DNA from: Nitrospirota bacterium
GTDB taxonomy: Bacteria > Nitrospinota_A > UBA7883 > JACRGQ01
Direction of reading: 5' to 3'
Assembly: GCA_024275955.1 (NCBI GenBank)
Contig: JAJRYD010000017.1
Span: forward strand, 1-34,613
DNA: 34,613 nt
Below, piece after piece: positions 1 through 34,613 of this stretch; within the stretch, counting starts at the first letter, position 1; each line of letters begins with the position of its first letter. The notes below the pieces were generated by a model, which had not been told where the DNA came from, ran no database searches, and saw only the letters and a program-made list of their open reading frames with translations. Made by a program: the position numbers and the translations under genes.

Positions 1-139
1 CCGTCCTTAAGAAAGGTAAACGGCTATAGACATCTCATAGAATTAAGGAGCATTATGAAACGTATCCTGAATACCGGTAAAGTTGCAAAGGTAGCGTGAC
101 GGTCATGCCGGAAATTTCAACTAAGAAAGGGCTTGATTC
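1..139. repeat. Left copy of 139-bp terminal inverted repeat
   Basis: Bases 1-139 are the exact reverse complement of 34475-34613; identity stops at base 140. The inner boundary falls at a codon edge of the methyltransferase gene, just after codon 300, so the repeat has replaced the 3' end of that gene. The plus strand carries a GGAG ribosome-site-like sequence before an ATG at 55, opening only a 14-codon reading frame. No transposase is visible because the sequence ends inside the repeat. It is most likely the end of an insertion sequence at which an assembly graph broke; a genuine terminal repeat or a fold-back artefact is less likely. Confidence 0.85.
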
Positions 140-1223: not shown

Positions 1224-2696
1224 CTACTTCAGCCCCCTATACCCATAGCCTTTGTATAGATAAAAGGTACGCGCGTAAACGGTATTGCGTCGGCGGCGTA
1301 TCTCGATTTCCACAGGCTCTTCCACCCTGTCAAAAAGATAATAGGCCGACGGCCCTTCCGTAAAGATATTGTCGGCAACGAAAATAAAGTTAGCTCCTAT
1401 AGGCGGTTCTGCTGGGTCAAAGAAATCGAACTGGTCTGTTTTCTTGTTCAGCGAGAATACCGGAATCCTATCCTGCACAGCAAAGACTATCGGCCCGGAG
1501 AGAACATGATTGTGCGACATAACAAACTTTGGTTTATCGTCCGGTAATGAAGCATACATCTCTTCTATCTTCGGCCCTGCTTCGTCCCACCCGTAGAGGG
1601 TGTTGGTTATATCGTACCTCGGTTTATCAAACGGAATGACAGGGTAAAACGTCTGAAAGAAAAGGACGAGTGAAAGTATAAAGCCAACCCCTAGGGAGAG
1701 AGCGGTAAACCGCTTGAAAAACTTTCCGCCTTCGACAAACAGATACCCCCAGGCGGGGAAAAGCGCTAGATACCCAAGCGCCGTCCAGTGCGGTTCGCTT
1801 TCTTTTGTCCAGAAAGTTATAAGCATGAAAAAAGCGAGAGGAGGAACGCCGAGCCAAAAAGGAACAAAAAACTTTTCTTCCTTTTCCACAAAAACTTTTT
1901 TGAATAAAACATACGCCACATAAATAAGCGCGAGCCAGATAAACGGAGAGTAGTAAAGCATCTGCCCGCCAAGAGCCTCCGCCATATGGTTAAGCTCAAA
2001 GCCTCTGCCGGAATGATGCCGCTCGGTTAGATGAAATTTGAACGACGGAAAATCGTTCTTCACGTTCCATATAAGAACCGGCGAAAAGACAATAAGCCCC
2101 AAAACCCCGCCGAGGTATATATGCGGCGCTTTTAAATGTTTTCTATAACCTTTGTGCCACGCAAGCATAAGAAGCGTGAAAGGAATAAGAGGAAGCACCA
2201 TATACTTGCTTAACAACCCAAGCCCCACCGTAATGCCGACAAGATACCAGAGCATAGGCTTATCATTTTTAAGCAGATAAGCGACAAGGTAAACAAAGAG
2301 AAACCAGAAAAACATAGCAGGTACATCCGGCACTATCTGCAACCCGCCGTACGCCAGTATCGGGCAGAAGTTGAACATCATCAGCGCGTAGAAAGCCGCC
2401 TTGTCGCTTTCAAAAATCAGAACAGTTGTACGGTGCAAAACGATACAGCTAAATATATACAGCGTGGCGGATGGAAAGCGTGTCCAGAAAACCCCCGTAT
2501 CGTCGATGCTGTTAAATATTCTTATCAGCCACGCTACCATCGGAGGGTGGTCGTAATAACTCCAGTCTATATTTCTCGACCATGCCCAGTAATACGCCTC
2601 GGCATCGCCAAGGCCGGAGCTTTCCATAGCGATGAGGCGTAGCCAGCCTATAGTAAGAACCATTGTTACCGCGCGAATCTGCCATTTTATCGACAT
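1224..2696 (-). CDS. GT39/ArnT-like membrane glycosyltransferase
   Basis: A 490-residue polytopic membrane protein of the dolichyl-phosphate-mannose mannosyltransferase/ArnT (PMT_2) superfamily. These enzymes move a sugar from a polyprenyl-phosphate donor to an acceptor on the periplasmic face of the inner membrane. After the first membrane helix comes an Asp-x-Glu motif (D31, E33) in a DAEAYYW segment, then YYDHPP at 47-52, the usual first periplasmic loop of the family. About ten further hydrophobic segments follow, ending in a roughly 130-residue soluble domain. It starts 2 nt after the lpxI stop, so it is the last gene of the oxidoreductase-lpxI-glycosyltransferase operon. That context suggests a lipid A or LPS core acceptor, but the sugar and acceptor cannot be read from the sequence. 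Confidence 0.82.
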   Translation of the reverse strand: MSIKWQIRAVTMVLTIGWLRLIAMESSGLGDAEAYYWAWSRNIDWSYYDHPPMVAWLIRIFNSIDDTGVFWTRFPSATLYIFSCIVLHRTTVLIFESDKAAFYALMMFNFCPILAYGGLQIVPDVPAMFFWFLFVYLVAYLLKNDKPMLWYLVGITVGLGLLSKYMVLPLIPFTLLMLAWHKGYRKHLKAPHIYLGGVLGLIVFSPVLIWNVKNDFPSFKFHLTERHHSGRGFELNHMAEALGGQMLYYSPFIWLALIYVAYVLFKKVFVEKEEKFFVPFWLGVPPLAFFMLITFWTKESEPHWTALGYLALFPAWGYLFVEGGKFFKRFTALSLGVGFILSLVLFFQTFYPVIPFDKPRYDITNTLYGWDEAGPKIEEMYASLPDDKPKFVMSHNHVLSGPIVFAVQDRIPVFSLNKKTDQFDFFDPAEPPIGANFIFVADNIFTEGPSAYYLFDRVEEPVEIEIRRRRNTVYARTFYLYKGYGYRGLK

Positions 2697-2698
2697 TA

Positions 2699-3502
2699 TT
2701 AAATCGCCACAAAAGGCAGACCGGCTTCATCGCATGCCGCGACGACTTCCGGCAGGTTTACGACAACGGTGCGGCCCGCCTCTACGGCAAGGCCGGAAGC
2801 GCCGCCGCTTACAAGATGTTCTATGGTTGCTAGACCGACAGAAGGAATGTCGAATCTAAAGTCCTGTTTGGGCCGGCTTGTTTTAATCATTACCGCTCCG
2901 CTCCCTCCAGCAAGCCTGCATCCACGTTCAATAGTTTCGTCGGTTCCCTCTACCGCTTCCACTGCTATAACGCTCTCGCCTTTTACTATAAGCGTCTGCC
3001 CCACATCCTTGCCGGCGAGATCTTTGCAAAGCTCGAACCCGTAATCAAAATCTGCCTGCACATCTTTAGACGGCTTATGCTTTCCAAGCAGACCTTTTGG
3101 CGGAAGAAAGTTAGGTAGCCAATCGGTCTGCTTTTCCACAATCAGACCGTTTTTTTCCAGCTCTTCTATGATGGAAAGCATAATAGAGCTGTCTCTTTTC
3201 ATTATCCGTTTTGCCATTATTTTCGCGCCAGTAACATCTAGCATAAGGTCGGTAAACACCATCGCTTTTTTAAATTTACCTATAAGAACCACTTTCTTCG
3301 CGCCTGCACTTTTAAGAATTTTTATTGTTTTGCCGACCTTGCCTATAGGATGCGTATAGACCGTTGCCAAACCGCCAAGCCCTGTCGCGTTAGCTTCATT
3401 GAACGTCACCGCAACCACCGCGACGGAACGTTTTTTTGCCGTTTCGCAAACCGCTATCGGCAGGCTTCCGCTACCAGCTATAAGGCCAAGAGTGCCGCCC
3501 AT
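2699..3502 (-). CDS. lpxI: UDP-2,3-diacylglucosamine pyrophosphatase LpxI
   Basis: LpxI hydrolyses UDP-2,3-diacylglucosamine to lipid X and UMP, the fourth step of lipid A synthesis, in organisms that lack LpxH. The 267-residue length is normal for the family. The N-terminal GLIAGSGSLP segment (6-15) and the C-terminal QDFRFDIP motif (213-220) are family signatures; aspartates 214 and 218 lie in the region containing the essential aspartate of Caulobacter LpxI. The start ATG overlaps the TGA of the upstream oxidoreductase by one base, and the glycosyltransferase follows 2 nt after the stop, indicating translational coupling. The gene marks the host as an LPS-making Gram-negative. Confidence 0.93.
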   Translation of the reverse strand: MGGTLGLIAGSGSLPIAVCETAKKRSVAVVAVTFNEANATGLGGLATVYTHPIGKVGKTIKILKSAGAKKVVLIGKFKKAMVFTDLMLDVTGAKIMAKRIMKRDSSIMLSIIEELEKNGLIVEKQTDWLPNFLPPKGLLGKHKPSKDVQADFDYGFELCKDLAGKDVGQTLIVKGESVIAVEAVEGTDETIERGCRLAGGSGAVMIKTSRPKQDFRFDIPSVGLATIEHLVSGGASGLAVEAGRTVVVNLPEVVAACDEAGLPFVAI

Positions 3503-4494
3503 CAGCCGCCGTTAGCCAGTTTAAACTTTTCCAATATCTGGAGCGCGACCTTTAGCGACTTTAGTTCATTTTCAACCGACACGTTTCTGCTGGTGCGCTC
3601 AAAAACGCAGTCGACAAGGTGCTGAAGCTCGAGCTTTAGAGGGTTTTCACGGTGAACAAAAATCCTTTCGCGCCTTTCCTCTTCTTTGTACTTAAGCTCT
3701 TTTGTTTTCGTAGTGCCGGAGGAATCTCTCAATTCGTGCTGGGAAGTTACAAGGCGATGGACGTTTATCTCCTGATCGGCAAAATCCATCTTTATATATT
3801 CCTCGCGGGACGTTATCGCCATATTCCGTATTTTATTCTGCGTTGCCCTGCTGGCGGTTACCGTTGCCAGACAGCCCGATTCAAACAGTATCTGCACCAC
3901 AACTATGTCATCGCGCTTAGAGAAGACTATACTCCCCATAACATTAATCTGTTTTACTTCGGACTTTACAAGGTTGAGAATTATATCTATATCGTGAATC
4001 ATAAGGTCGAGTACTACGCCATCCTCGGCTACACGGGGGTCGTAAGGGCCAAGCCGCCTGCTTTGTATAAGTAGCGGCTCTTTCACCAGCTTTTGTAGCT
4101 CCTGAACGGCGCCATTAAACCGCTCGACATGGCCAACATGCAAAACAAGGTCATTCTTCTCGGCGATATCAAAAAGCTCCTTAGCATCTTCGTAATTATT
4201 GGAGATAGGTTTTTCGACCAGCAGGTTCGTGCCGTTGAGGAGCGCTTCTTTCGCAACCTCGTAATGAAGCTTGGTAGGAACAGCAACGGTCGCTATATCG
4301 ACCTGTTGCACCAGATCTCTGTAATTTTCAAAATATTCGATACCGAATCTTTCGGCCGTAGCCTTGCCCAGCTTTTGGTTTACATCGGCAATTCCCACAA
4401 TTTCGACATCCCGTATCTCTGAATAGCAGTTGAGGTGAAAAGTACCCATCCGTCCGACACCGATAACTCCCACGCGCAGTTTTTTATTTTCCAT
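3502..4494 (-). CDS. Gfo/Idh/MocA-family oxidoreductase (lipid A cluster)
   Basis: A 330-residue NAD(P)-dependent oxidoreductase. The N-terminal Rossmann fold has its glycine motif at residues 9-17 (GVIGVGRMG). The family's EKP motif lies at 94-96, where the lysine contacts cofactor and substrate, and an HVERFN segment follows. It is the first gene of the operon, overlapping lpxI by one base. Oxidoreductases of this family beside lpxA/lpxI/lpxB are common. One characterised member, GnnA, oxidises the 3-OH of UDP-GlcNAc so that GnnB can aminate it, giving amide-linked acyl chains in lipid A. No gnnB is visible here, so that function is only a possibility suggested by context. Confidence 0.88.
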   Translation of the reverse strand: MENKKLRVGVIGVGRMGTFHLNCYSEIRDVEIVGIADVNQKLGKATAERFGIEYFENYRDLVQQVDIATVAVPTKLHYEVAKEALLNGTNLLVEKPISNNYEDAKELFDIAEKNDLVLHVGHVERFNGAVQELQKLVKEPLLIQSRRLGPYDPRVAEDGVVLDLMIHDIDIILNLVKSEVKQINVMGSIVFSKRDDIVVVQILFESGCLATVTASRATQNKIRNMAITSREEYIKMDFADQEINVHRLVTSQHELRDSSGTTKTKELKYKEEERRERIFVHRENPLKLELQHLVDCVFERTSRNVSVENELKSLKVALQILEKFKLANGG

Positions 4495-4679
4495 AGCTGA
4501 AACGGATTATAGCAACCGATTGGGGGGGGTGGCAATGGCGGGTAATGCGCCTATTAAATCTGCAACGGTCTATAACGCTTAAGGCAGACCGTGAAAAGAG
4601 CCGAAACGCAGACAAAAAATTAGAGGAAAATGGCTGTAAGTTCTTTAAAAAGACGTTTTGTACACAGCTTTTAGGGGCC

Positions 4680-5744
4680 TTATTTTTGTTTGCCTTTCTT
4701 TTTGGCCGGCGTATCGACACCGCTGTAGATAGACAACTCTTTGAAAAGCTTTCTTGGAACCGGAACTTTTATAAGCTTTCCTTCTGGAAGATCCTCTTCT
4801 GGAATCATCGAATTCATTACAGCCGTTTCGAAGGCAAGCTTTTCATCTCCGCTAAGTTTAGCCGCCACGCTTCTAAAGCTGTCTCCTTTTTTGGTCCTGT
4901 ATATTTCTAGGCGGTATTCCGGTTTGGCTTTTTTCCCTTTTCTTCTGTCGACCTTCCCCCACGGCAATCCTCTTACCATGTTTATATACTCATCTCTTTT
5001 TACCAAAGTCTTTTTGCCCCTATTAAGAAGTATCTGCGATTTTTCTCCAACCCGTACAATTCTCTCTATCGTGTCTGGGTGAGTGGCGATAAAAGCATGA
5101 TACCCAACCCCCCCGACTCTTGACTTAAACCGCAAGGTACGAAACATTTTCGCGCTTTCGCTCGGGTCGTAACCTGCCTCGTAGGCATATATCATCCCAA
5201 GTTCATCGGCATTCAACTCCAGCTCTCTCCCGTACCCAAGTTTTTTCATAGCCGATATGGAACTGCCGGCAACAAGCAGTGCGGCGCTGTCGCCGCTGCT
5301 CGAGCCGCTCGCGACGCTTCCAGCCAAACCTGCGAAAATGAGAAACATGTCGCCCATGCTCTTTTTCAGCTGTTTAACGGAATGATGGCCTATTACATGC
5401 CCAGTCTCATGCCCAAGCAAGCCGGCCAACGCCGCCTCGCTGTCGAGATACGCAAGCATGCCGGTAGTTACATATATGTATCCGCCCGGCAAAGCGAAGG
5501 CGTTGAGCATAGGATCTTCTAAAACCGTAAAGCGGTATTCAAACTGCGGGTCGTCTATCGAGCCGAGTAGCTTTTGGCCGACAGACTGCACATACTCCTG
5601 CAGTGCCTTATTTTCACTTACCTGAAACATCTTGCGTATATACCTGTCGGATCTAGCACCTATTTTTATCTCTTCTTCCAGCGTTACCGCCAAAACATCG
5701 AGCGGAACGAGCAAAAGCAAAAAGAAAATCAGAGATCGTTTCAT
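4680..5744 (-). CDS. Periplasmic M48 zinc metalloprotease (BepA/LoiP type)
   Basis: A 354-residue exported protease. Residues 1-19 form a signal peptide (Lys-Arg, hydrophobic core, ending near VLAV). The zinc motif HETGH lies at 112-116 and the third ligand is probably E176 in an E-x-x-A-D segment, both typical of M48 peptidases. A Gly/Ser/Ala-rich loop separates them. After the peptidase domain (to about 250) comes a basic linker and a region at about 275-340 that looks LysM-like, followed by a Lys-rich tail, which would suit a peptidoglycan- or envelope-associated quality-control protease. It is transcribed away from the agmatinase-family gene, and 185 bp separates it from the next gene, so it is probably its own unit. 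Confidence 0.88.
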   Translation of the reverse strand: MKRSLIFFLLLLVPLDVLAVTLEEEIKIGARSDRYIRKMFQVSENKALQEYVQSVGQKLLGSIDDPQFEYRFTVLEDPMLNAFALPGGYIYVTTGMLAYLDSEAALAGLLGHETGHVIGHHSVKQLKKSMGDMFLIFAGLAGSVASGSSSGDSAALLVAGSSISAMKKLGYGRELELNADELGMIYAYEAGYDPSESAKMFRTLRFKSRVGGVGYHAFIATHPDTIERIVRVGEKSQILLNRGKKTLVKRDEYINMVRGLPWGKVDRRKGKKAKPEYRLEIYRTKKGDSFRSVAAKLSGDEKLAFETAVMNSMIPEEDLPEGKLIKVPVPRKLFKELSIYSGVDTPAKKKGKQK

Positions 5745-5792
5745 CTTCTAATATTATCATTTTTCTGTTACAAAGATGATGTGGAAAAGGGG

Positions 5793-6659
5793 ATGAACTC
5801 TTACGATTTCGATTTTGGCGGGATAAGCTGTTCCTACGATGCGTCTTCCATCGCTATACTGCCTGTGCCGTATGCCGGAACAGTAACCTACGGGCAGGGA
5901 ACGCATGAAGGCCCAGCGGCTATACTAAACGCATCTCAAAACGTAGAGACCTACGATTTTACTACCGGAAAAAACCTTGAAACCCTCAAACTATCCACAA
6001 TGCAGATGATAGACTGCGCGGGCGAACCTGAAGAGGTTATGCCAAGAATAGAAACTGCTGTCGCGCAAATCGTATCCGACGGCAAACAGCCGTTCATGCT
6101 CGGCGGAGAACATTCTATAACAGGCCCTGCCGTAAGGGCGGTGGTCAAGCATTTTGGAGAGTCGCAAATAGGGGTAGTACAGCTTGATGCCCATGCCGAC
6201 CTGCGCCAAAGCTACTCAGGCACTATCCACAGCCATGCGTCGGTTATGAGCCGTGTGCGGGAGGTAGCGCCTGCCGTACAGCTTGGGGTACGAAGTTGCT
6301 CAATCGAAGAAGCTAAACTTATAGAGAAACAAAAATATATTATTCTAAGCCCTGAAGACTCTTTGAAAACCGATAAGCTGGAAAAAGCGCTTGAAACACT
6401 CCCAGAAAAAATTTACCTCACGGTTGATATAGACTCTATCGACCCTTCAATAATCCCATCGACAGGAACACCAGAACCGGGGGGATACAACTGGTATGAG
6501 ATAAATAAAATAATAGAAACCATCGGCAGGTTTAAAAAGGTTATCGGCGCCGACTTAGTGGAGCTTGCCCCGATTGAGGGGACGCACGCGCCGGACTTTA
6601 CCGCCGCCAAACTGGCATTCAATATACTTTCCATCATGAGCGGAGAGCCTACGGCATGA
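5793..6659 (+). CDS. speB: Agmatinase/arginase-family ureohydrolase
   Basis: A 288-residue Mn-dependent ureohydrolase that most resembles agmatinase, which converts agmatine to putrescine and urea. The metal ligands are visible: GGEHS at 104-108 (H107), DAHAD at 132-136 and DIDSIDPS at 212-219, followed by the family signature GTGTPEPGG. The frame is open 73 codons further upstream, but that stretch lies inside the divergent protease gene. The ATG at 5793, directly after an AAAGGGG sequence, is preferred; an in-frame GTG at 5781 is an alternative. The stop overlaps the start of the next gene (ATGA), implying coupled translation. No arginine decarboxylase gene is present in the window. Confidence 0.88.
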   Translation: MNSYDFDFGGISCSYDASSIAILPVPYAGTVTYGQGTHEGPAAILNASQNVETYDFTTGKNLETLKLSTMQMIDCAGEPEEVMPRIETAVAQIVSDGKQPFMLGGEHSITGPAVRAVVKHFGESQIGVVQLDAHADLRQSYSGTIHSHASVMSRVREVAPAVQLGVRSCSIEEAKLIEKQKYIILSPEDSLKTDKLEKALETLPEKIYLTVDIDSIDPSIIPSTGTPEPGGYNWYEINKIIETIGRFKKVIGADLVELAPIEGTHAPDFTAAKLAFNILSIMSGEPTA

Positions 6660-7311: not shown

Positions 7312-7439
7312 GGGCTGTTGCCGAATGATATAAATTTGATTTTTCCACAAATTACCAACCACTAAAGACTCTATTTTTAAGAAGTAAGAAAATGAACTTC
7401 TCCTTTAAACGCTCAAAAAACTCTTTTGGAAACAGTCCC
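7312..7439 (-). mobile_element. MITE-like element, copy A
   Basis: A 128-bp element related to copies at 16463-16590 and 17639-17766, here in opposite orientation. Its ends are imperfect inverted repeats: GGGCTGTTGCCGAA at the low-coordinate end against GGGACTGTTTCCAAA read from the other. It is flanked by the direct repeat TTAGGT at 7306-7311 and 7441-7446, one extra base lying before the second repeat. It sits between the exonuclease and Crp/Fnr genes and carries no gene of its own. Confidence 0.8.
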
Positions 7440-16267: not shown

Positions 16268-16744
16268 ACGGTTGATATAAGGTAATTTTAAACCTCTTTG
16301 ATTGATTTCCCAATACTTTTTGGCAAAAGCCCGATTTTAGCCGGCTATCGCGCCGCTTCTACAGCAAGATAGCGCCCTCTATTCAAAATACCGATAGCTA
16401 ACACTGACCTAGCACGGCATCTTTCCTTGAAATGTTGTATTTTCAGGTTTTTTCTACTTACAGGGACTGTTTCCAAAAGAGTTTTTTGAGCATTTTAAGG
16501 GAAAGTTTATTTTCTAACTTCTTTAAAATAAAACCGTTAGAGATTGGTAATTTGTAGCAAAACCAAGATTGTCTTATTCGGCAACAGCCCCTTACAGCAC
16601 AAACGATAGCTCTGCTCTTTTCAGAAAGTTTTAGCATCTTTTCAGGCACTTCGCCTCTATCAAACGGAGATATTCTGCCGTTAATGGCAGGCTTTAAAAC
16701 AGACCCGCTTGTACGCCTAGCGCGCCTTTGCAAAGGAGAATAAA
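16268..16744. other. Intergenic region between malic enzyme and ABC ATPase
   Basis: A 477-bp stretch without a convincing gene. It contains MITE copy B (16463-16590) and, just before the ABC gene, the ribosome site AAGGAG at 16733-16738. A short open frame across the MITE on the minus strand is not supported by any start or homology I can see. Confidence 0.6.
16463..16590 (+). mobile_element. MITE-like element, copy B
   Basis: A 128-bp element with ends GGGACTGTTTCC and, read inward from the other side, GGGCTGTTGCCGAA. It is flanked by a perfect 6-bp direct repeat CTTACA at 16457-16462 and 16591-16596, the expected target-site duplication. It shares its length and internal blocks (a GAGTTTTTTGAGCATTTTAAGG stretch, a TTGGTAATTTGTAG stretch) with copies A and C. 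Confidence 0.87.
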
Positions 16745-17488: not shown

Positions 17489-17862
17489 CCCGTGGGCGGT
17501 AAAAGCAGGTAGCCGCGCCCTGATAGGAAAGATTAAGGTACTCGGTAAATTAGGGGCTACCCGCTCTACAGTGTTTGGCGGTTTTTCCGCAAAATCTTTG
17601 CACAACAAGATTGCCGACTGCGAATCTACAGCTCTTATGGGACTGTTGCCGAAAGAGTTTTTTGAGCATTTTAAGGAGAAGTTCATTTTCTAACTTCGCA
17701 AAAACAGAGCCTTTAGGGGTTGGTAATTTGTAGAAAGATCAAATTTATCTCATTCGGCAATAGCCCCCTTATACGCTGACGGCGACAGAAAGGCTGATGC
17801 CTTCGCCGGCGAGACGGCGGCATTCAATCTTGAGAGTGCAGAACAGCATAAAAGAAAGCCGG
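17489..17862. other. Intergenic region after the ABC ATPase
   Basis: A 374-bp stretch without a convincing gene. It holds MITE copy C (17639-17766) and GC-rich short inverted repeats (GCCGGC motifs around 17805 and beyond) that might end the neighbouring transcript. No permease remnant was recognised. Confidence 0.5.
17639..17766 (+). mobile_element. MITE-like element, copy C
   Basis: A 128-bp element with ends GGGACTGTTGCCGAA and, inward from the other side, GGGCTATTGCCGAA. The flanks carry the direct repeat CTTAT (17634-17638 and 17768-17772), with one extra base on the right. It is in the same orientation as copy B, 1.05 kb away, so B and C bracket the ABC ATPase gene. Confidence 0.83.
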
Positions 17863-18346: not shown

Positions 18347-18538
18347 TTAAAACTGGACAGCTCCGATACCTCCTTTGTTTTTGGAAGGGAACAGTTCACC
18401 ACAAACAGTATGGAATTTCAACTTCTCAACCGCCTCATCCGCATATTGAAGGCTGTTAAGCAGGTAGCTGGTAGCAGGAATGAAAAGATTTCCGGACAAA
18501 GCTGACAGGAGCAGTTTGAGCGCGCCTTTTCGGTTCAT
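18347..18538 (-). CDS. Possible small Tat-like signal protein or gene remnant
   Basis: A short reading frame (about 63 residues from the ATG at 18538) whose N-terminus, [15 protein letters not shown], resembles a twin-arginine or Sec signal region. The rest has no recognised motif. Its 3' end lies in a different frame of the region just before the membrane-protein gene, and its 5' end overlaps the aspS promoter. It may be a decayed gene. Confidence 0.25.
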
Positions 18539-18561
18539 TTCCAAAGGAAAAAAAGTATAAT
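18534..18561 (+). promoter_or_regulatory. Putative aspS promoter
   Basis: TTCATT (18534-18539) and TATAAT (18556-18561), spacing 16 bp, lie 25 bp before the aspS start, which has its own GGAG ribosome site. Confidence 0.5.
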
Positions 18562-18585
18562 ACCTCTCTTAAATTAAGGAGAAAA

Positions 18586-22296: not shown

Positions 22297-22719
22297 TTGT
22301 CAAAAAAATTTAACGACGTTGGAAACATTAAAGCATTTCTCGGCTCCGGCGCGGAGTTTGAAGGCCTTTTAAGCTTCGATGGCACTGTCAGGATAGACGG
22401 CCTTTTCAAAGGCGAGATACAGACAAACGACTGCCTTATTATCGGAGAGTCCGGCAGGGTTGACGCCGAGCTTCAGGTAGGACATCTTATTGTTATGGGC
22501 GAGCTGAATGGTAACGTGAGGGCCAGCGAAAAAGTGGAGCTTACCGCGACAGGCCATGTAAAAGGCGATGTCATAACCTCCGTTCTTGTAATTCAGGAAG
22601 GTGCCAGCGTAGAAGGCAACGTGCAGATGGACAGCTCTGGAGGAGAGTCGGACAAAAAGCTGATAAGCATAAAAGATTCCGGCGATGCTTCCGGCTCAAG
22701 CAAAGCTGTAGCCAACTAG
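22297..22719 (+). CDS. Bactofilin cytoskeletal protein
   Basis: A 140-residue polymer-forming cytoskeletal protein. The body is a repeating right-handed beta-helix pattern with FLGSGAEFEGLLSFDGTVRIDG and later GxV/I turns, typical of bactofilins, which form filaments that organise cell-wall synthesis or polarity; a Ser/Asp-rich tail follows. The only plausible start is a TTG at 22297, with AAGGAAATGAATAAGG just upstream. An overlapping 8-codon frame starts at the ATG at 22287 in another frame, so a single-base error in the adjacent A-run is also possible. Confidence 0.88.
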   Translation: MSKKFNDVGNIKAFLGSGAEFEGLLSFDGTVRIDGLFKGEIQTNDCLIIGESGRVDAELQVGHLIVMGELNGNVRASEKVELTATGHVKGDVITSVLVIQEGASVEGNVQMDSSGGESDKKLISIKDSGDASGSSKAVAN

Positions 22720-22802: not shown

Positions 22803-22846
22803 GCGCCCGTAGCTCAGCTGGATAGAGCATCTGACTTCGAATCAGA
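22803..22846 (+). tRNA. tRNA-Arg(TCG), 5' half only, interrupted
   Basis: Bases 22803-22846 form the acceptor 5' strand GCGCCCG, a D-arm (GCTC/GAGC) and a complete anticodon arm (stem TCTGA/TCAGA, loop CTTCGAA, anticodon TCG). The variable loop, T-arm and matching 3' acceptor strand do not follow. Instead the sequence runs into tandem repeats and an integrase gene. The break lies right after the anticodon stem, a common crossover point for tyrosine integrases. A -10-like TAGAAT lies at 22785-22790. Confidence 0.8.
22830..22846 (+). other. Likely integration (att) site in the tRNA anticodon arm
   Basis: The near-palindromic anticodon arm is the junction between host tRNA and element. The integrase 170 bp away, and the lack of the tRNA 3' half, mark this as the left end of the element. 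No second copy of the core was found to the right edge of the window, so the element end lies outside or the copy is too short to see. Confidence 0.6.
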
Positions 22847-22850
22847 TACT

Positions 22851-22880
22851 CTGAAACATCCTGAAATATCCTGAAACATA
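22851..22880 (+). repeat. Three tandem 10-bp repeats, possible integrase arm sites
   Basis: The units CTGAAACATC, CTGAAATATC and CTGAAACATA follow one another directly after the truncated tRNA. Regularly spaced short direct repeats beside att cores are typical arm-type binding sites of DUF4102-type integrases. Function is inferred from position. Confidence 0.55.
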
Positions 22881-22941
22881 AAAATGACGGATAATCCCTT
22901 TAAAAATAGGTAATTAGCTAAATAGTCGTTTCACTATTTGT

Positions 22942-22997
22942 TTGCCTGTATCACCGAATTTCATGTAAAATGCTAGCCATATGAACCGTGGCTAGCA
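22942..22997 (+). promoter_or_regulatory. Integrase promoter with inverted-repeat operator
   Basis: TTGCCT (22942-22947) and TAAAAT (22966-22971) are 18 bp apart. A perfect inverted repeat TGCTAGCCA (22971-22979) / TGGCTAGCA (22989-22997) overlaps the start region, just before the GGGAG ribosome site. A second hairpin, AAATAGT/ACTATTT (22920-22939), lies upstream. This suggests integrase expression is regulated. Confidence 0.45.
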
Positions 22998-23015
22998 GAT
23001 AATCAAGGGAGCAGT

Positions 23016-24230
23016 ATGGCATTTACCAATCCAAAAGTTCGGGCTATGAAGCCCAAGGAAAGCCGATATATCTCTTGGGAAGACGGCTCTACCGGACTAG
23101 GGGTTAGGGTTTCTCCGCAAGACCGGAAAACCTTTATCTTCATGTACCGCCATGAAGGGAAGTCACGGATGATGACTGTCGGCCCCTACCCCCGTATAAC
23201 TCTTGCCGAAGCGAGAGTAAGAGTAGCCAATGCCAAAGAAAAACTTTCAAGAGGTGTTGATCCCGGGTCGGAATGGGTGAAGTCAAAAAAAGCTAATCGT
23301 GAAGCTCCAACGGTTGACGATCTGGTCGAGGTTTACCTTGAAAAGTGGGCAAGACCTCGCAAGAAAAGTGCCGCAGAGGATGAACGGATTCTTCGTAAGG
23401 ATGTACTGCCGCTATGGGGCAGGCGAAAGGCGAAAGCTGTAAAGCGAAGAGATGTAATATTGCTTCTTGATAATATCGTAGGGAGAGGCGCACCGATTGC
23501 GGCGAATAGAACTTTTGCAGTAATAAGAAAAATGTTCAGGTTCGCACTTAGCCGTGATCTTGTGGAAACGAGTCCTTGCGAAGCGGTTGTCGCTCCGGGA
23601 AAGGAAACGAGGCGTGACAGAGTTTTGAGCGAGAATGAAATAAAGGCGTTCTGGCTTGGGCTCGATAAAGCGCAAATTACGGAAGGTCTTAAGTTTGTTT
23701 TAAAGCTCCAGCTTGCCACAGCCCAAAGGCGGGGAGAAGTTGTCGGAGCAGAATGGTCTGAGTTTGATATGGATAGTCGGTTCTGGACTATTCCAGCTGA
23801 AAAATCGAAAAATGGGCTTCCGCATCGTGTACCGTTATCTCCTCTGGTTCTTGATTTGCTAGAGGATTTAAAAAAGCTTTCCGGTGAATCAAGATGGCTC
23901 TTTCCATCCAGAGGGCCAAAAGATTCTCCTCTGTTTCCAAGCTCTGTAGTGCATGCGATAACTCGCAACATGGATGTTTTTAAGGTTGAGCATTTCACGC
24001 CGCACGACCTGCGGCGAACCGCCGCCAGCCATATGACATCTATTGGAATATCTCGCTTGGTAGTGGCAAAGATTTTGAATCATGCCGAATCCGGCGTTAC
24101 CGCAGTTTATGATCGCCATTCTTATGACAACGAGAAACGACAGGCTCTCAATGCTTGGAGCCGGAAGCTGGAATCAATTGTTAGCGGGGAAATGGAAAGA
24201 GGTAAAGTCATTGATCTGGTTAAAAAATAG
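23016..24230 (+). CDS. int: Tyrosine integrase (DUF4102/CP4-57 type)
   Basis: A 404-residue site-specific recombinase. The N-terminal arm-binding DUF4102-like domain (about 1-95) is followed by the core-binding and catalytic domains. The catalytic set is visible: R238 (TAQRRGE), K263/K265 region, H330 and R333 (HDLRR), H356 (NHAESG) and Y365 (VYDRHSY). It catalyses integration and excision. GGGAG lies 6 bp before the ATG. It lies beside a truncated tRNA-Arg, its expected target type. Confidence 0.95.
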   Translation: MAFTNPKVRAMKPKESRYISWEDGSTGLGVRVSPQDRKTFIFMYRHEGKSRMMTVGPYPRITLAEARVRVANAKEKLSRGVDPGSEWVKSKKANREAPTVDDLVEVYLEKWARPRKKSAAEDERILRKDVLPLWGRRKAKAVKRRDVILLLDNIVGRGAPIAANRTFAVIRKMFRFALSRDLVETSPCEAVVAPGKETRRDRVLSENEIKAFWLGLDKAQITEGLKFVLKLQLATAQRRGEVVGAEWSEFDMDSRFWTIPAEKSKNGLPHRVPLSPLVLDLLEDLKKLSGESRWLFPSRGPKDSPLFPSSVVHAITRNMDVFKVEHFTPHDLRRTAASHMTSIGISRLVVAKILNHAESGVTAVYDRHSYDNEKRQALNAWSRKLESIVSGEMERGKVIDLVKK

Positions 24231-24275: not shown

Positions 24276-24584
24276 ATGGAGTTCATCGAAACGCCGTTAT
24301 TTAGCAGGATTGTACGCGATTACTTCAGCGACGATGAATATACCGCCTTGCAACTATCGCTTGTGATGAATCCTGAAGCGGGATCGATTATCCGGGGAGG
24401 CGGCGGTATTCGCAAGCTTCGCTGGGGAGCCGCTGGTCGTGGCAAGCGTGGCGGGTATCGGGTTATTTACTACTGGAAGAATAAAGTCGGTGAAATATGG
24501 CTTTTAACAATGTATGCCAAGAACGAAAAAGAAAATATATCGCACGAAATGCTCCGTAAGTTTAGAGAGGAGATTGATAAATGA
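24276..24584 (+). CDS. RelE/HigB-type toxin
   Basis: A 102-residue member of the RelE/HigB toxin superfamily. The basic core GGGGIRKLRWGAAGRGKRGGYRVIYYW and an LLTMYAKNEKE C-terminus are characteristic. These mRNA interferases act with the ribosome. The toxin comes first and the antitoxin overlaps its stop by 4 nt (ATGA), the HigBA/NadS-like order. It lies within 50 bp of the integrase, so it may stabilise the element. Confidence 0.88.
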   Translation: MEFIETPLFSRIVRDYFSDDEYTALQLSLVMNPEAGSIIRGGGGIRKLRWGAAGRGKRGGYRVIYYWKNKVGEIWLLTMYAKNEKENISHEMLRKFREEIDK

Positions 24585-24847
24585 GTAAGCGTAATATTGG
24601 TAAAGAAATTCTGGACGGAATCAGAGAAATAAAAGCTGGCAAGGGGAAGCGTTTTACTGTGAAGTTGCCGGACAACGTGAAGGATGTCAGAGAGAAGATG
24701 AAATTGAGCCAATCGGCATTTGCGGCACTGCTTGGCGTAAGCGTTAGAACTTTGCAAGACTGGGAGCAGGGAAGACGCAAACCTTCAGGCCCAGCGTTAG
24801 CCTTACTGCGAGTTGCTGTAAAAAATCCTAGGGCACTTGTTAGTTAG
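24581..24847 (+). CDS. XRE-type antitoxin
   Basis: An 88-residue antitoxin. A 30-residue basic N-terminus precedes a helix-turn-helix (about 40-70, KLSQSAFAALLGVSVRTLQDWE, then GRRKPSG), the DNA-binding part that represses the pair through the upstream palindrome. The start overlaps the toxin stop. Confidence 0.85.
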   Translation: MSKRNIGKEILDGIREIKAGKGKRFTVKLPDNVKDVREKMKLSQSAFAALLGVSVRTLQDWEQGRRKPSGPALALLRVAVKNPRALVS

Positions 24848-25071: not shown

Positions 25072-26088
25072 CTAGATTCGATTATTCTCCTTCAGACCAA
25101 TCTCGATATGATTGCTTTTTGTGTCGTGATCCTTCGGTATGCAATCCCACTTGTCAGTTCTAAGTTCTTGCTTTAGCTCATCATGCAATGCATAAAGATA
25201 GAATCCATCGCATTCTATTTTTGTTTTATCAGCTACAGATATAGTACATTTGAAGCCTTCTCCATACGTGACCAAGGTTGTACAGGTGTTGTGAGTTAGC
25301 TCAAAGTTGCCTGATGGAGCTACTTTCTCTAGTAGTGAAAAATCGACCATAGGCCAGTATTCGTTCGGATGTTTTGAGGCTTTTAATACAAAGAAAATCC
25401 ACGGCGATAGCAAATCTGAAATCCGTTTAATTACTTCATTTGGGAGGTTGTTGTTTTTGTATACAGTGCTTTCTAGTAAAAATAGAAAACACTTAGTAGC
25501 TGATTTAGCGACAGTAAATTTTACTTTTTCATGGGCGTAGAGTTGTGGTAAATATTTTATCGGGTGTTCTTCTAGTTTCATTCCAGAAGGGGATTCAGAG
25601 CTTAGGTAGGACTTTACTTCAGCTAAGTTAAGAATCTCTAGACGTAATAACTCATCTATGCAGTGAACTATAGTAGCAACCCATGCTGAAGTAGCTCCCC
25701 TTTCAGGTGCGTGAAAAAGGGCAGACTTGATTGTCATGTTGCCCCACACTTTACGAATTTCTCCTGCTATCCACAATAATTCGCCCCGAGTTCTAATTCC
25801 GTAGTGTTTAAGGTATGAAACTTTGTCTTCTTGCTCTTGAAGGTTGGAGTCAATTTTCCATGTTGCCCATATCTTTTCCTTGGTGCTTTTCCCAAGAAGC
25901 CAATCTTTGTTAACTTGCAAGATATTTTCAAATAAGCAGGCAACATCTTCTGTTAGAGCCCTTTTTCCGCCTTCAATACGAGATAATTGGGCATCCGAAA
26001 TTCCTAGTAGACCGCTTAGATCTCTTAGGGGGAGGGCAAGTTTTTCCCTAATATACTTAACCCTTTCGCTTGCGTTCTTTAATTCCAT
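25072..26088 (-). CDS. XRE-family regulator with large unknown C-terminal domain
   Basis: A 338-residue protein with an N-terminal helix-turn-helix (about residues 8-62, DLSGLLGISDAQLSRIEGG) and a roughly 270-residue C-terminal region that I do not recognise, possibly a ligand or protein-binding domain. It is transcribed divergently from the AlpA/relaxase operon across palindromes at 26130-26206, which makes it a good candidate controller of transfer. It may have been longer, see the in-frame extension past its TAG. Confidence 0.72.
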   Translation of the reverse strand: MELKNASERVKYIREKLALPLRDLSGLLGISDAQLSRIEGGKRALTEDVACLFENILQVNKDWLLGKSTKEKIWATWKIDSNLQEQEDKVSYLKHYGIRTRGELLWIAGEIRKVWGNMTIKSALFHAPERGATSAWVATIVHCIDELLRLEILNLAEVKSYLSSESPSGMKLEEHPIKYLPQLYAHEKVKFTVAKSATKCFLFLLESTVYKNNNLPNEVIKRISDLLSPWIFFVLKASKHPNEYWPMVDFSLLEKVAPSGNFELTHNTCTTLVTYGEGFKCTISVADKTKIECDGFYLYALHDELKQELRTDKWDCIPKDHDTKSNHIEIGLKENNRI

Positions 26089-26129: not shown

Positions 26130-26168
26130 GTCAGCATTCATGCTACCATTGGTAGCATGAATGCTGAC
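26130..26168. promoter_or_regulatory. Perfect 39-bp palindrome, likely double operator
   Basis: The 19-bp arm GTCAGCATTCATGCTACCA is followed by one base and its exact reverse complement. Each arm is itself a hyphenated palindrome (AGCAT-N2-ATGCT), giving two adjacent dimer sites. It lies 41 bp upstream of the XRE gene start and 77 bp before alpA. A transcription terminator is less likely because no T-run follows. Confidence 0.75.
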
Positions 26169-26468: not shown

Positions 26469-29191
26469 ATGCTTTCGGTAACAACAATCTCGGTAGGTCA
26501 GGCTGGGTCATATTATCAGAAGGACTCTTACTATGTCGCTGAAGGGGGAAAAGGGCAGTGGGCAGGTAGAGGAGCCAAGCTTTTAGGTTTGAGTGGTGAG
26601 GTTAGGCAGGAGGAATACCAAAATCTTATAGAAGGTAGATCACCTTGTGGCAAGGTTCAGCTCGTTGGCGATTCGAACAATGGCAAAGAGCTTAAGGCTG
26701 GAATAGACCTTACTTTTTCTGCTCCGAAGTCGGTAAGCATTCTGGCTGAGTATAATCCGAGAATTTTTGAGGCTCACCGTAAAGCCGTAGGTACAGCCTT
26801 AGAGGTTGCTGAGAGGTATGCCGCAGGACGGCTTTATAACAGTGATACGGGTAAGGTAGAGAGATTCAAAACGGGCAACATAGTAGCGACGAAGTTCGAG
26901 CACCGCACCAGCCGAGAATTAGACCCACAACTGCATACGCATTCCTTTATTGCAAATATCACTCGACTTCCCAACGGTGAGTTCAGGGCTTTAGATAGGG
27001 GCGATTTTTTTAAGCAGAAGTTATACCTTGGTCAAGTCTACCGCTCAGCAATGGCATCAGAGCTTCAAAAGCTTGGTTACGCCGTCACGCATGATGAAAA
27101 AGGGCTGTTCGAGATTGCCGGTGTAGATAAAGAGCTTATTAAAGAATTTTCCAGCCGGTCTGCACAGATAGAAACTAAAAAAGTCGAGCTTAGGAAAAGT
27201 TTCCAAATGCGAGTGAATCCAAGCTGTCTGAGCTTGCCTGTCTTGATAGCAGGGTAGCTAAAAAGGATGTTGACCTATCTGCTATCCGTAAAAACTGGCA
27301 AGAGCGAATAAGAAAGCTTGGGTATAGCAAAGAGCAGATTCTAAAGTCTGTAAAAGAAGAATTTACAAAATCACAAACTGCCGATAACCGGCTGTCGGCA
27401 GATGAATATTTGAAACTAGCGGCCAATGCCATTCATGACAATGAATCTACCTTTAGCCGTGAGTCAGTGATAAAAGATGCTCTAAAGCTGTCAGTGGGCA
27501 AATATACCAATGCCGACATCGAAGCTTCTTTTGATTCCCTTTTGAATAAAGAGTTTCTTCAGGTTGGGAAACAGTATGCAACGGCTGAGATGGTACGGAT
27601 TGAACATGAAATCCTTTCCGAGGTTCTTGAAGGGCAGAATACGAAAAACTCGGTATCGAGTGCCGCGAAAATTGAGAAGAAGCTTTGCAAGCATCTACAC
27701 CTAACCACCGGACAACGGCAGGCAGTTGAGCTTATAGCGACAACGAAAGATCAGGTTATAGGAATACAGGGGGACGCAGGAACGGGAAAGACGACAGTCT
27801 TGAAAACTGCGAAAGAGGTAATCGAAAAAGAGGGGTACAGGCTTCGTGGTCTTGCGTTTACGGGGAAGGCGGCCAATGAGATAGAACAGGCAAGCGGTAT
27901 TAAATCGAGCACGCTTCATAGCTTTTTGGGAACGCTTGAAAATGAAGAAAAGGCTACGGCAGAGATTGGCAAAAACGAAATATGGGTTGTGGACGAAGCC
28001 AGCCTAGTAGGTTCCCGTCAGCTTAAAAGTTTGATAGATGCTTCGGGGAAGTATGACGCACGTCTTGTCCTAATCGGCGACACAAAACAGCTTGCGGCGG
28101 TTAATGCCGGAAAGATATTTAAGGAACTCCAAGAGCACGGCATGGCTACTGTTCGTATGACTGAAACGCTTCGGCAGACCGATGAAACCTATAAATCGAT
28201 AGTCTCTGCTATTTCCGAACACCGATTGGAAGATGCCTTTGACCTTATTCGAGAAAACGGGAAGATTGAGATAGCTGAAAAAGGCGACTTGAGCAATAAG
28301 GTTTGTGCAGATTATTTAAAGTCCAATATCGAAAAAACGATAATCGTTACCGATACAAACCGCAACCGGCAGGAATTGAATTCCCAAATTCGAGAGCAGC
28401 TAAAAGCCGAAGGGAAGCTTACTGGTGAAGCGGTTTTTAATACCCTTGAACCCAAAAACATCACCGGCATAAATCGTAATTTTGCAAATTCCTACGAAGA
28501 AGGAAACCGGCTTGTATTTACCAAAGCGGGGGCTGGCAGTAGGGCTGGGACAATCGCAAAAGTCGTTTCTGTAGATACCCATAATCACACATTGAACTAT
28601 GAAATTAAAAAGAAAGATGGCAGTTCCGAAATACGAGAACTAAACCTGAAAGAGCATGGCGATAAGGTCTCAGTTTTTAAAGAATATGAAACCGAGTTTG
28701 CAGAAGGGGATAAAGTTCTTTTTGCCAAAAACGACAAGATGTTTGATGTCCAGAATGGATCAACCGGAACGGTTAAAAAGATTAACGGTGACCAGCTTTC
28801 CGTAAAAATGCAAAATGGAGACAGCAAGAAATTCTCCATAGACCAATATCGCTACCTTTCCCACGGCTACGCCATAACTGATTACAAAAGCCAAGGGCAA
28901 ACCGCAGATAAGGTTTTGGTGCATGCCACCACCTCCGATATGGAGAAAACCTTTAATAGCTTTTACGTCTCCTCTACTAGAGGGAGAAATGATTTCAAGA
29001 TATATACCGACAACGATTCGAAGCTTATGGAGCAAGTGAAGCTGGAACAGGAAAAAACCAGCACCATCACTAAAAAGAGCGCAGAGCAGGCGATGAATCA
29101 CACTTCGGATAAATCAGAAATCAGCAACTCCAACGAAGTGTCAGAAGGGAAAGGAATAAGCAAAACAGCAGAAATAGAAATAATCATTTAG
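26469..29191 (+). pseudogene. MobF (TrwC/TraI) relaxase-helicase with a frameshift
   Basis: The relaxase nicks oriT and unwinds the transferred strand. The N-terminal part has Tyr pairs Y15/Y16 and Y21/Y22 near the start, a GxGQWAGRGA stretch, DLTFSAPKSVS and the metal-binding H145 with H156/H158 (DPQLHTH). The C-terminal RecD-like helicase has Walker A (GDAGTGKTT, bases 27770-27796), Walker B (VVDEAS), and later motifs in HGYAITDYKSQGQT and VSSTRGRND. At about 27194-27200 the frame changes by -1 in an AGGAAAAG run: frame 1 ends at 27257, while frame 2 (…EKFPNASES…) continues to 29191. Restored, it would be about 907 residues. It may be a real mutation or a sequence error. Confidence 0.85.
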
Positions 29192-29611: not shown

Positions 29612-29950
29612 ATGTCTGAGAGACGGGTTCTAAACTTTCGAGTGTCGGAAGAGCTGGCAAAGGAAATAGAGCAAAAGGCCAAGACTATGGGGCTAACGGT
29701 TTCTGGATATATGCGCTTCCTTGCAAAGAATGAAATGGTCATTTTGCGGGAAATTGAATTGTTGAAAATCCAAATTGCCAGACTTCAAAACACTATTTTG
29801 GACACAAACAAAATGGCATTCCGTGCGTACAGGTACGGTTGGTTTTGTGCCTTTGCTTTGCGTGAGTCGCAGATTAAACAGGTCGAACTAAAAGTGGAGA
29901 AAGAGCTAAGAGAATATGAGGAATCGATTAAAGAAGGAAATTTAAAATGA
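29612..29950 (+). CDS. Ribbon-helix-helix MobC-like relaxosome protein
   Basis: A 112-residue protein. The N-terminal RHH fold (RVLNFRVSEELAKEIEQKA, then LTVSGYMRF) is followed by a helical charged tail. MobC/TraY-like RHH proteins bind oriT and help the relaxase. Its start follows the oriT-like stretch, and its stop overlaps the coupling protein start by 4 nt (ATGA). Confidence 0.7.
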   Translation: MSERRVLNFRVSEELAKEIEQKAKTMGLTVSGYMRFLAKNEMVILREIELLKIQIARLQNTILDTNKMAFRAYRYGWFCAFALRESQIKQVELKVEKELREYEESIKEGNLK

Positions 29951-31800
29951 AAACGAAAGAGTCAAGCAATTCAGCAAGTGGATTCGAGATATGGAAAAAT
30001 CAGTTAAAGATGAGTATCGCAATGCATCGAGTTATCTTTTTGATCTGTCTAGCGGTTTGGTCGTCAAGTACCGTGATATGGGTGTTTAAAGCGAATGATC
30101 CCGGAGAGTTTTCACTTATCTGGCGTTACCTCTGGGCAGAGGAGTTTGGGGAAAAGACTCCTAACGGGAAGTGGCCAGAGTTTGTTTATGAAGGGCGTGT
30201 TTACCAATTCAGTAATCAGGAGCTATTGGCAAGTCCAAAGATCAAAGAAAGGGTTGATACGATTTTGGAGAAGTGGAAAGCAGATGTAACTTTTAAAGCG
30301 ACAATCGCTTTTGGGCTATCAGTAATTTTGTACATCATCATTTATAAGTTTTTCAGACGTTATACAAAAAAGAGAATGGCCCCGCGTCATATAAGAGGAA
30401 CCCGCCTTATTACAGAGAGAGAATTGATAAAGGCGGCCAAAAGCAATGGAGGTGGTAGTAGATTCAGTATCGGCAATCTGCCGATCCCTGTAGATATAGA
30501 ATGCAAGAGTTTCTTCTTTGTAGGAAGCTCCGGTAGTGGAAAAACTCAGGCGATTCTCCCGATGATTTCCAAGGTACAGGAGAGTAATCAAAAAGGGATT
30601 GTTTATGATATTAAGGGCGACTTCACATCTTCGATGCATAGGGAGGGGAAAGATTTTATCTGGAATCCTCTCGATGCGAGGTCTTTAAAATGGACAATTT
30701 TTAATGACATAAAGAGCATTCAGGATGCTTATAAAATTGCCTTTTCCCTTCTTCCCAGTACAGGCGGAATGGATGCAACCGCACATTTCCGAAATGCGGC
30801 AAGGGATCTTTTTATCGCATGCCTTCTGCACTGCTACCAGACCGGCAAGCGGACAAATAGAGATCTCTGGCAACTGCTTTCATCTTCGATTCCTGAGTTG
30901 GCAAAGTTACTTAAAGGTTCTGTGCTGACCGAAAAAGGTGCAACTCACATTCAGGATTCAAAGCAGTACGCCCAAAGCGTTGTCGGTTCCATGATGCCTT
31001 TGGTGAGCGTTATTGAATATATGCCGGATGGTGATTTCTCTGTTGATAGTTGGGTCAAAGATACTGAGAACCCCAATATCATATTTATAGGAAACCGCCC
31101 GGATATGGAAGATTTTCTTAGACCGGCGATGAGTCTGTTTGTCGATTTTATAGGGACACGGGTTCTTTCAATGCAGGATGATATAAAGCGCAGGATTTAC
31201 TTTTTCATGGATGAGTTTCCATCTTTAGGTAATTTGGGAAGTTTGCCAAAACTTCTTTCTATGGGGAGGAGCAAAGGATTTTCTGGGATTCTTGCGGCTC
31301 AAAGCAATTCACAGATTATAGAGAAGTATGGAGAGAATGTTGCGGCAGAGATTATTAATGGTTGCGCTACATATGCAATTTATAATCTTCGAGATCCTAA
31401 GTCGGCAAAATATTTTGCGGATGCAATAGGGCAACGAGAGGTGGAGCATCCGACTGAATCCACCACATACACTGCTGGTGATGGTGCTAGAGACGGCGGC
31501 GGCATTAATCAGGGTAGGGTAAAGGAGCATGCCGTTATGGCAGAGGAGCTTCAAGCATTACCGGAACTGACCTTTATTCTAAAATTGGCCAATTGTCCGA
31601 ACCCAGCAAAACTAGAAATCTCTTTTCGAGAATTCCCTAAAATAGTTTCTTCTTATATAGAGAGGGAGGGAATGGATATCGAAAGCCTGCTTAAGGCGGC
31701 AATGGAGGCTAAAGTGAATAAGCCGACAAACGATAGCAAAGAACCCCCTAAAGACGATTTACAAATTGATGGTGAACTGGAGGAATGGCTTGATGGGTAA
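29947..31800 (+). CDS. Type IV coupling protein (TrwB/TraD/VirD4 type)
   Basis: A 617-residue conjugation ATPase. Two N-terminal membrane helices (about 27-47 and 114-136) precede the soluble ATPase. Walker A is GSSGSGKT (193-200), Walker B is IYFFMDEF (D422, E423), and a LLSMGRSKG/AAQSNSQI segment follows, as in TrwB/TraD. It brings the relaxosome to a type IV secretion system. Its presence with a relaxase, but without VirB/Tra channel genes, is the hallmark of an IME or an incomplete ICE. Confidence 0.92.
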   Translation: MKTKESSNSASGFEIWKNQLKMSIAMHRVIFLICLAVWSSSTVIWVFKANDPGEFSLIWRYLWAEEFGEKTPNGKWPEFVYEGRVYQFSNQELLASPKIKERVDTILEKWKADVTFKATIAFGLSVILYIIIYKFFRRYTKKRMAPRHIRGTRLITERELIKAAKSNGGGSRFSIGNLPIPVDIECKSFFFVGSSGSGKTQAILPMISKVQESNQKGIVYDIKGDFTSSMHREGKDFIWNPLDARSLKWTIFNDIKSIQDAYKIAFSLLPSTGGMDATAHFRNAARDLFIACLLHCYQTGKRTNRDLWQLLSSSIPELAKLLKGSVLTEKGATHIQDSKQYAQSVVGSMMPLVSVIEYMPDGDFSVDSWVKDTENPNIIFIGNRPDMEDFLRPAMSLFVDFIGTRVLSMQDDIKRRIYFFMDEFPSLGNLGSLPKLLSMGRSKGFSGILAAQSNSQIIEKYGENVAAEIINGCATYAIYNLRDPKSAKYFADAIGQREVEHPTESTTYTAGDGARDGGGINQGRVKEHAVMAEELQALPELTFILKLANCPNPAKLEISFREFPKIVSSYIEREGMDIESLLKAAMEAKVNKPTNDSKEPPKDDLQIDGELEEWLDG

Positions 31801-34474: not shown

Positions 34475-34613
34475 GAATCAAGCCCTTTCTTAGTTGAAAT
34501 TTCCGGCATGACCGTCACGCTACCTTTGCAACTTTACCGGTATTCAGGATACGTTTCATAATGCTCCTTAATTCTATGAGATGTCTATAGCCGTTTACCT
34601 TTCTTAAGGACGG
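34475..34613. repeat. Right copy of 139-bp terminal inverted repeat
   Basis: Exact reverse complement of 1-139. Outside the match, the flanking sequences differ. Read from here outward it begins GAATCAAGCCC and ends at the window edge. Its orientation places the same repeat, pointing outward, at both ends of the window. Confidence 0.85.

What the first reader, a model, noticed from the sequence alone, without database searches (positions are those of the whole stretch)
22803..22880. tRNA-Arg(UCG) split in its anticodon arm by a mobile element
The 5' half of a canonical tRNA-Arg is present, but the element does not supply a 3' half, as most tRNA-targeting elements do. The gene would be non-functional here unless another tRNA (for example ACG anticodon) reads CGA.
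Basis: partly seen in the sequence, partly recalled or inferred. Interest (0 to 1): 0.6.

Follow-up and report, generated by a model that had tools for sequence, protein, structure and literature searches.

The report
Mobile element split an arginine tRNA gene
A conjugation-type mobile element has inserted backwards into the anticodon loop of an arginine tRNA gene and, unlike its relatives, left the gene broken at both ends; the cell can still read the codon because an intact second copy of that tRNA lies elsewhere in the genome.

Summary
Window 22803-22846 is the 5' half of tRNA-Arg(UCG), whole through the anticodon arm; from 22847 an integrative, mobilizable-type element follows (tyrosine integrase, MobF relaxase, NikA-like, TrwB-type coupling protein). 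The missing 3' half is on another contig, C31:3816-3860. A relative's gene order shows that C3 and C31 are the two breakpoints of one inversion, so the two halves come from one gene. Joined, they give a perfect 77-nt tRNA-Arg(UCG). The halves share only a 12-bp core, CTTCGAATCAGA. In 18 related elements the integrase-side end abuts the tRNA 3' half, and in the four whose far end is held, that end rebuilds the tRNA. Here the integrase end, homologous to that of a close relative, abuts the 5' half: the insertion is in the opposite orientation and neither end rebuilds the gene. The core matches the antisense strand of this anticodon arm perfectly, which explains the orientation. Viability is explained by an intact tRNA-Arg(UCG) on C54; there is no tRNA-Arg(ACG). 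A third 3' half lies beside a second integrase on C51. Anticodon-loop insertion is known; antisense, non-restoring insertion is an unusual variant. Limits: the element's middle is unassembled and there are no reads.

The parts
22297..22719 (+). bactofilin-like gene; upstream flank that precedes an intact tRNA-Arg(TCG) in relatives G002, G005 and G008
22803..22846 (+). 5' half of tRNA-Arg(UCG): acceptor 5' strand, D arm, whole anticodon arm
22835..22846 (+). 12-bp core CTTCGAATCAGA, repeated at the other end of the element (C31:3816-3827, followed by the tRNA 3' half to 3860)
22847..23015 (+). integrase-side attachment arm with about 10-bp direct repeats (CTGAAACATC/CTGAAATATC/CTGAAACATA); aligned to the same arm of relative L100 (0 of 500 shuffles as good; core to int start 180 vs 177 bp)
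23016..24230 (+). tyrosine integrase, full length (Arm-DNA-bind_3, Phage_int_M, Phage_integrase); the R, HxxR, H and Y motifs are present in the family alignment
24276..24584 (+). RelE-like toxin candidate
24581..24847 (+). HTH antitoxin candidate paired with the RelE-like gene
25072..26088 (-). HTH (Xre-type) regulator
26469..27257 (+). MobF/TrwC relaxase domain
27410..29191 (+). TraI/TraA-type helicase part, in another frame than the relaxase domain
29612..29950 (+). NikA-like mobilization protein
29947..31800 (+). TrwB/TraD-type coupling protein
34475..34613 (-). terminus of a multicopy IS at which the contig ends; the middle of the element beyond it is not assembled
18403..18585 (.). inversion breakpoint: AspS is here joined to the orthologue of a gene that lies about 8 kb beyond the tRNA in relative G002

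Best explanation
A MobF-type integrative, mobilizable or conjugative element inserted by tyrosine recombination into the anticodon loop of the chromosomal tRNA-Arg(UCG) gene that stood between the bactofilin gene and what is now the C31 flank. Its family normally places the integrase end against the displaced tRNA 3' half and rebuilds the tRNA at the far end with a carried 3'-half copy. This element's core, read on the integrase strand (TCTGATTCGAAG), matches the antisense strand of this anticodon arm 12 of 12, because the arm CTGA-C-TTCGAA-TCAG is nearly palindromic. It therefore went in backwards. Its far end carries no tRNA half, so the gene was cut into a 5' half (window) and a 3' half (C31) and not restored. 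The cell tolerates this because an intact tRNA-Arg(UCG) on C54 reads CGA. Shown: both halves, the core, one parent gene, reversed orientation relative to relatives, the absence of a rebuilt tRNA at either assembled junction, and the second copy. Inferred: the antisense match as the cause of the orientation, and loss of function of the split copy.
For: 5' half and 3' half found and joined in a script: one perfect tRNA-Arg(TCG), one base (discriminator) from the C54 copy. In G002 the order is FliJ-MgtE-like-AspS-GltX-bactofilin-tRNA, with three further genes 8-13 kb beyond; in G000 MgtE-like joins the 3' half (C31) and AspS joins those three genes inverted (C3), the two breakpoints of one inversion. 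In 18 relatives with readable integrase ends the 3' half, cut at the anticodon, faces the integrase. In L104, L197, L198 and L218 the far end holds a complete tRNA with 49-95 bp repeats. The C3 integrase arm aligns with that of L100 from the core outward, 40 vs 21.6 +/- 3.8 in shuffles, so the integrase end is intact and the tRNA is reversed. Among the genome's 40 intact tRNAs, both strands, only antisense Arg(TCG) matches the core 12 of 12; the next is 9 of 12. No T-arm lies near either junction of the element. Second copy and no Arg(ACG).
Against: The stretch between C3 and C31 is not assembled. Both contigs end in the same type of IS end, so at least one further segment or a rearranged IS pair lies between them, and a second element in tandem could own the C31 end. 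No integrase as close as 60% identity was found, so this exact element's usual target is unknown. No reads were available to test for a mixed population. The core match is partly circular, since the core was read from this insertion.
Confidence: 0.77

Rival explanations
1. A tandem array: this element ends inside the unassembled gap, and a second element owns the C31 junction. The tRNA was first split by a restoring element and later broken by rearrangement.
For: The gap between C3 and C31 holds at least one further segment or a rearranged IS pair. A second integrase sits at another tRNA-Arg(TCG) 3' half on C51. The genome is rich in IS copies.
Against: The C31 junction carries exactly the same 12-bp core as C3. 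No integrase gene lies next to the C31 junction, as a standard-orientation element would have. No further Arg(TCG) 3' half is found in the bin.
Confidence: 0.15
2. The tRNA was originally restored at the integrase end and the carried 3' half was later deleted.
For: In many known tRNA islands the restored gene lies next to the integrase (general knowledge).
Against: The integrase arm aligns with that of L100 from the core outward with no missing stretch. All 18 readable relatives have the displaced 3' half on the integrase side.
Confidence: 0.05
3. Assembly chimera at the 44-51 bp repeat shared with C54.
For: C3 and C54 share 51 bp at 96% identity here, and the genome is a fragmented draft.
Against: Most contig-end overlaps cap at 141 bp, far longer than the repeat. 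The synteny and the matching C31 junction are independent of it.
Confidence: 0.03
4. The two halves are transcribed apart and joined in trans, as in archaeal split tRNAs.
For: Both halves are sequence-perfect.
Against: Nothing in the evidence suggests trans-splicing in this bacterium; no T-arm or tRNA-like flank was found near either junction in the element, and an intact copy makes it needless.
Confidence: 0.01

Closest known systems
tRNA-targeting genomic islands with anticodon-loop crossover (Islander class A, PMC4383910)
   Same: Tyrosine integrase; crossover in the anticodon loop; a displaced tRNA fragment marks one end.
   Different: Islander's defining signature is a restored tRNA plus a fragment (3760 islands with 3' and 159 with 5' fragments). 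Here there are two fragments and no restored gene at the locus.
The integrase's own family: elements at L099 and L100 (tRNA-Thr CGT), L104 (tRNA-Asn), L197 and L218 (tRNA-Pro), L198 (tRNA-Gly)
   Same: Related integrase (57, 55 and 43% identity for L099, L100 and L104), the same crossover point, and an integrase arm alike in L100.
   Different: Those with a readable integrase end lie in sense orientation with the 3' half on the integrase side; the four whose far end is held rebuild the tRNA there.
ICEBs1 in secondary attachment sites (PMC3715440)
   Same: An ICE inserted in a site that it does not restore; one secondary gene, yqhG, was hit once in each orientation.
   Different: Those sites are ordinary genes found in the laboratory; here the site is the anticodon arm of a tRNA, in antisense.

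Membership tests
tRNA-targeting tyrosine-integrase element, anticodon-loop class | intact tyrosine integrase gene next to one end | tested here: met
tRNA-targeting tyrosine-integrase element, anticodon-loop class | junction within the anticodon loop with a short shared core at both ends | tested here: met
   CTTCGAATCAGA at C3:22835-22846 and C31:3816-3827
tRNA-targeting tyrosine-integrase element, anticodon-loop class | target tRNA restored at one end by element sequence | tested here: not met
   no tRNA at either junction; the gap between C3 and C31 was not seen
tRNA-targeting tyrosine-integrase element, anticodon-loop class | integrase end adjoins the displaced 3' half, as in relatives | tested here: not met
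   it adjoins the 5' half
Integrative mobilizable or conjugative element | relaxase and coupling protein | tested here: met
   MobF relaxase domain and TrwB/TraD-type protein
Integrative mobilizable or conjugative element | own type IV secretion genes (would make it an ICE) | tested here: inconclusive
   none recognised among the ten element proteins scanned in the 11.6 kb held; the middle of the element is missing

The most novel reading that the evidence does not exclude
Every anticodon loop has U33 and usually A37, so its antisense strand again looks like an anticodon loop with the reverse-complement anticodon (Arg UCG reads as Ser CGA). Anticodon-loop integrases would then have a built-in antisense off-target that always destroys the tRNA. 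Such insertions would survive only where a second gene copy exists, and island finders that require a restored tRNA would miss them.
Probability: 0.3. Interest if true: 0.55.

Novelty: new variant of a known kind. Interest (0 to 1): 0.42.

Why it matters
Elements that enter tRNA genes are thought to be tolerated because they rebuild the gene. This is a well-anchored case in which the gene is not rebuilt, with a simple reason in the near-palindrome of the anticodon arm. It predicts a class of insertions that current island finders cannot report, and it bears on why genomes keep or gain second copies of a tRNA gene.

Tried and rejected
I first took C31 or C54 as joined to C3 through one IS copy. 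The IS has two different ends, and C3's right end, C31's left end and C54's left end all show the same one; C3's 8-bp flank (GCGTCTTT read outward from the IS) has no partner in the bin, so that link was dropped and synteny used instead. I considered that C54's full tRNA might be the restored end of this element; C31's synteny speaks against it. Tested whether the element's usual target is tRNA-Thr(CGT) or tRNA-Ser(CGA): the core matches Thr only 9 of 12, and the C31 end shows no T arm of any tRNA. No relatives of the integrase at E <= 1e-50 in plasmids; one at 30% in phages. Literature searches for tRNA genes disrupted without restoration found no direct precedent in the open library. An alignment of integrase arms with wrongly chosen coordinates was uninformative and redone. 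The C51 neighbour gene has no relative in the class, so whether that tRNA locus is ancestral stayed open.

Full report
What is there. The window is a whole contig (C3) of a 2.45 Mb, 56-contig, 98% complete draft genome. Bases 22803-22846 are the 5' half of tRNA-Arg(UCG), complete through the anticodon arm. No tRNA is called in the window, and the Rfam tRNA model matches only its middle. At 22847 a mobile element begins: a 404-aa tyrosine integrase with arm-binding, central and catalytic domains, a RelE/HTH pair, a regulator, a MobF relaxase domain and helicase in two frames, a NikA-like protein and a TrwB/TraD-type coupling protein. The contig ends at 34475-34613 in one end of an IS that is also found at ten other contig ends.

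Where the other half is. A pattern search of the genome for the T arm and acceptor strand of this tRNA found the 3' half three times: in an intact tRNA-Arg(TCG) on C54, and as orphan halves on C31 and C51. In relative G002 the order is FliJ, MgtE-like, AspS, GltX, a small gene, bactofilin, intact tRNA-Arg(TCG), and 8-13 kb further on three more genes. In G000, AspS on C3 is joined to those three genes in inverted order, and MgtE-like on C31 is joined to the tRNA 3' half. These are the two breakpoints of one inversion, so C31 holds the other half of this very gene. Joined in a script, the two flanks give a perfect 77-nt tRNA-Arg(TCG) that differs from the C54 copy only at the discriminator base. 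The halves share the 12-bp core CTTCGAATCAGA.

How its relatives behave. In 18 related integrases with a readable integrase end, that end abuts a tRNA 3' half cut at the anticodon, on the strand opposite to the integrase: Thr, Arg, Asn, Pro, Leu, Lys, Gly and others. No 5' half was seen there, though the motif used to look for 5' halves could miss some. Where the far end is held (L104, L197, L198, L218), it carries a complete tRNA with 49-95 bp direct repeats beginning in the anticodon arm. So the family rule is: displaced 3' half at the integrase end, rebuilt tRNA at the far end.

Why this one is different. The integrase-side arm of C3 aligns with that of L100 directly from the core, with the same spacing to the integrase start (180 and 177 bp; no shuffle of 500 scores as high). 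That end is therefore intact, yet it abuts the 5' half: the element lies backwards. Among the genome's 40 intact tRNAs, on both strands, the core read on the integrase strand matches only the antisense strand of tRNA-Arg(TCG) in all 12 positions; the next best is 9. The anticodon arm is nearly palindromic, CTGA-C-TTCGAA-TCAG. Because the element's far end holds no tRNA half, neither end rebuilds the gene. I infer that the antisense match set the orientation; since the core was read from this insertion, that inference needs an integration assay.

Does it matter to the cell. The genome's arginine tRNAs have anticodons TCT, CCT, GCG, CCG and TCG. There is no ACG, so CGA needs UCG. CGA is rare in the chromosomal genes sampled (16 of 8752 codons) and commoner in the element (20 of 2410). 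The intact C54 copy supplies it. That copy lies in a region with an IS end and a 3' half of a tRNA-Arg(TCT)-like gene, also cut at the anticodon.

Comparison with what is known. Anticodon-loop insertion is common: Islander lists 2083 such islands, and its method requires a restored tRNA. ICEs can enter secondary sites that they do not restore, once in each orientation in one gene. I found no report of an antisense, non-restoring insertion in an anticodon arm in the open library, which does not cover most subscription journals. I file this as a new variant of a known kind.

Limits. The element's middle is not assembled, so a tandem array cannot be excluded. No reads were available, so a mixed population cannot be excluded either.

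Noticed in passing
window 1-139 and 34475-34613: Both contig ends are the same end of one multicopy IS, in inverted order. Eleven contig ends carry it and about ten carry its other end; five pairs can be matched by an 8-bp target duplication, among them this contig's left end with C43.
   Followed up: yes
contig C51 (L070) 2448-5900: A second, distant integrase (about 25% identity) beside another orphan tRNA-Arg(TCG) 3' half, with a Phage_CRI replication gene whose end runs into hemL: apparently a truncated filamentous-phage-like element whose far end and rebuilt tRNA are gone.
   Followed up: partly
contig C54 (L071), about 3114-3160: A 3' half of a tRNA-Arg(TCT)-like gene cut at the anticodon loop lies about 180 bp after the intact tRNA-Arg(TCG); it differs from the genome's own tRNA-Arg(TCT).
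   Followed up: no
contig C20 (L040) 407-483: The arginine tRNA for CGC/CGU has anticodon GCG, not the usual ACG; only weak TadA-like matches are found in the genome and its relatives.
   Followed up: partly
window 26469-29191: The MobF relaxase is split into a relaxase-domain ORF and a helicase ORF in another frame: a frameshift, a draft error, or two genes.
   Followed up: no
window 26130-26168: A 39-bp near-perfect palindrome before the relaxase gene, a candidate operator or origin-of-transfer element.
   Followed up: no
window 7312-7439, 16463-16594, 17637-17770: A dispersed repeat of about 130 bp, also on C31, C51 and C54, one copy lying near each breakpoint of the inversion.
   Followed up: partly
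L099 2098-2165: Match to the Rfam int-alpA RNA downstream of a related integrase, above its gathering score.
   Followed up: no
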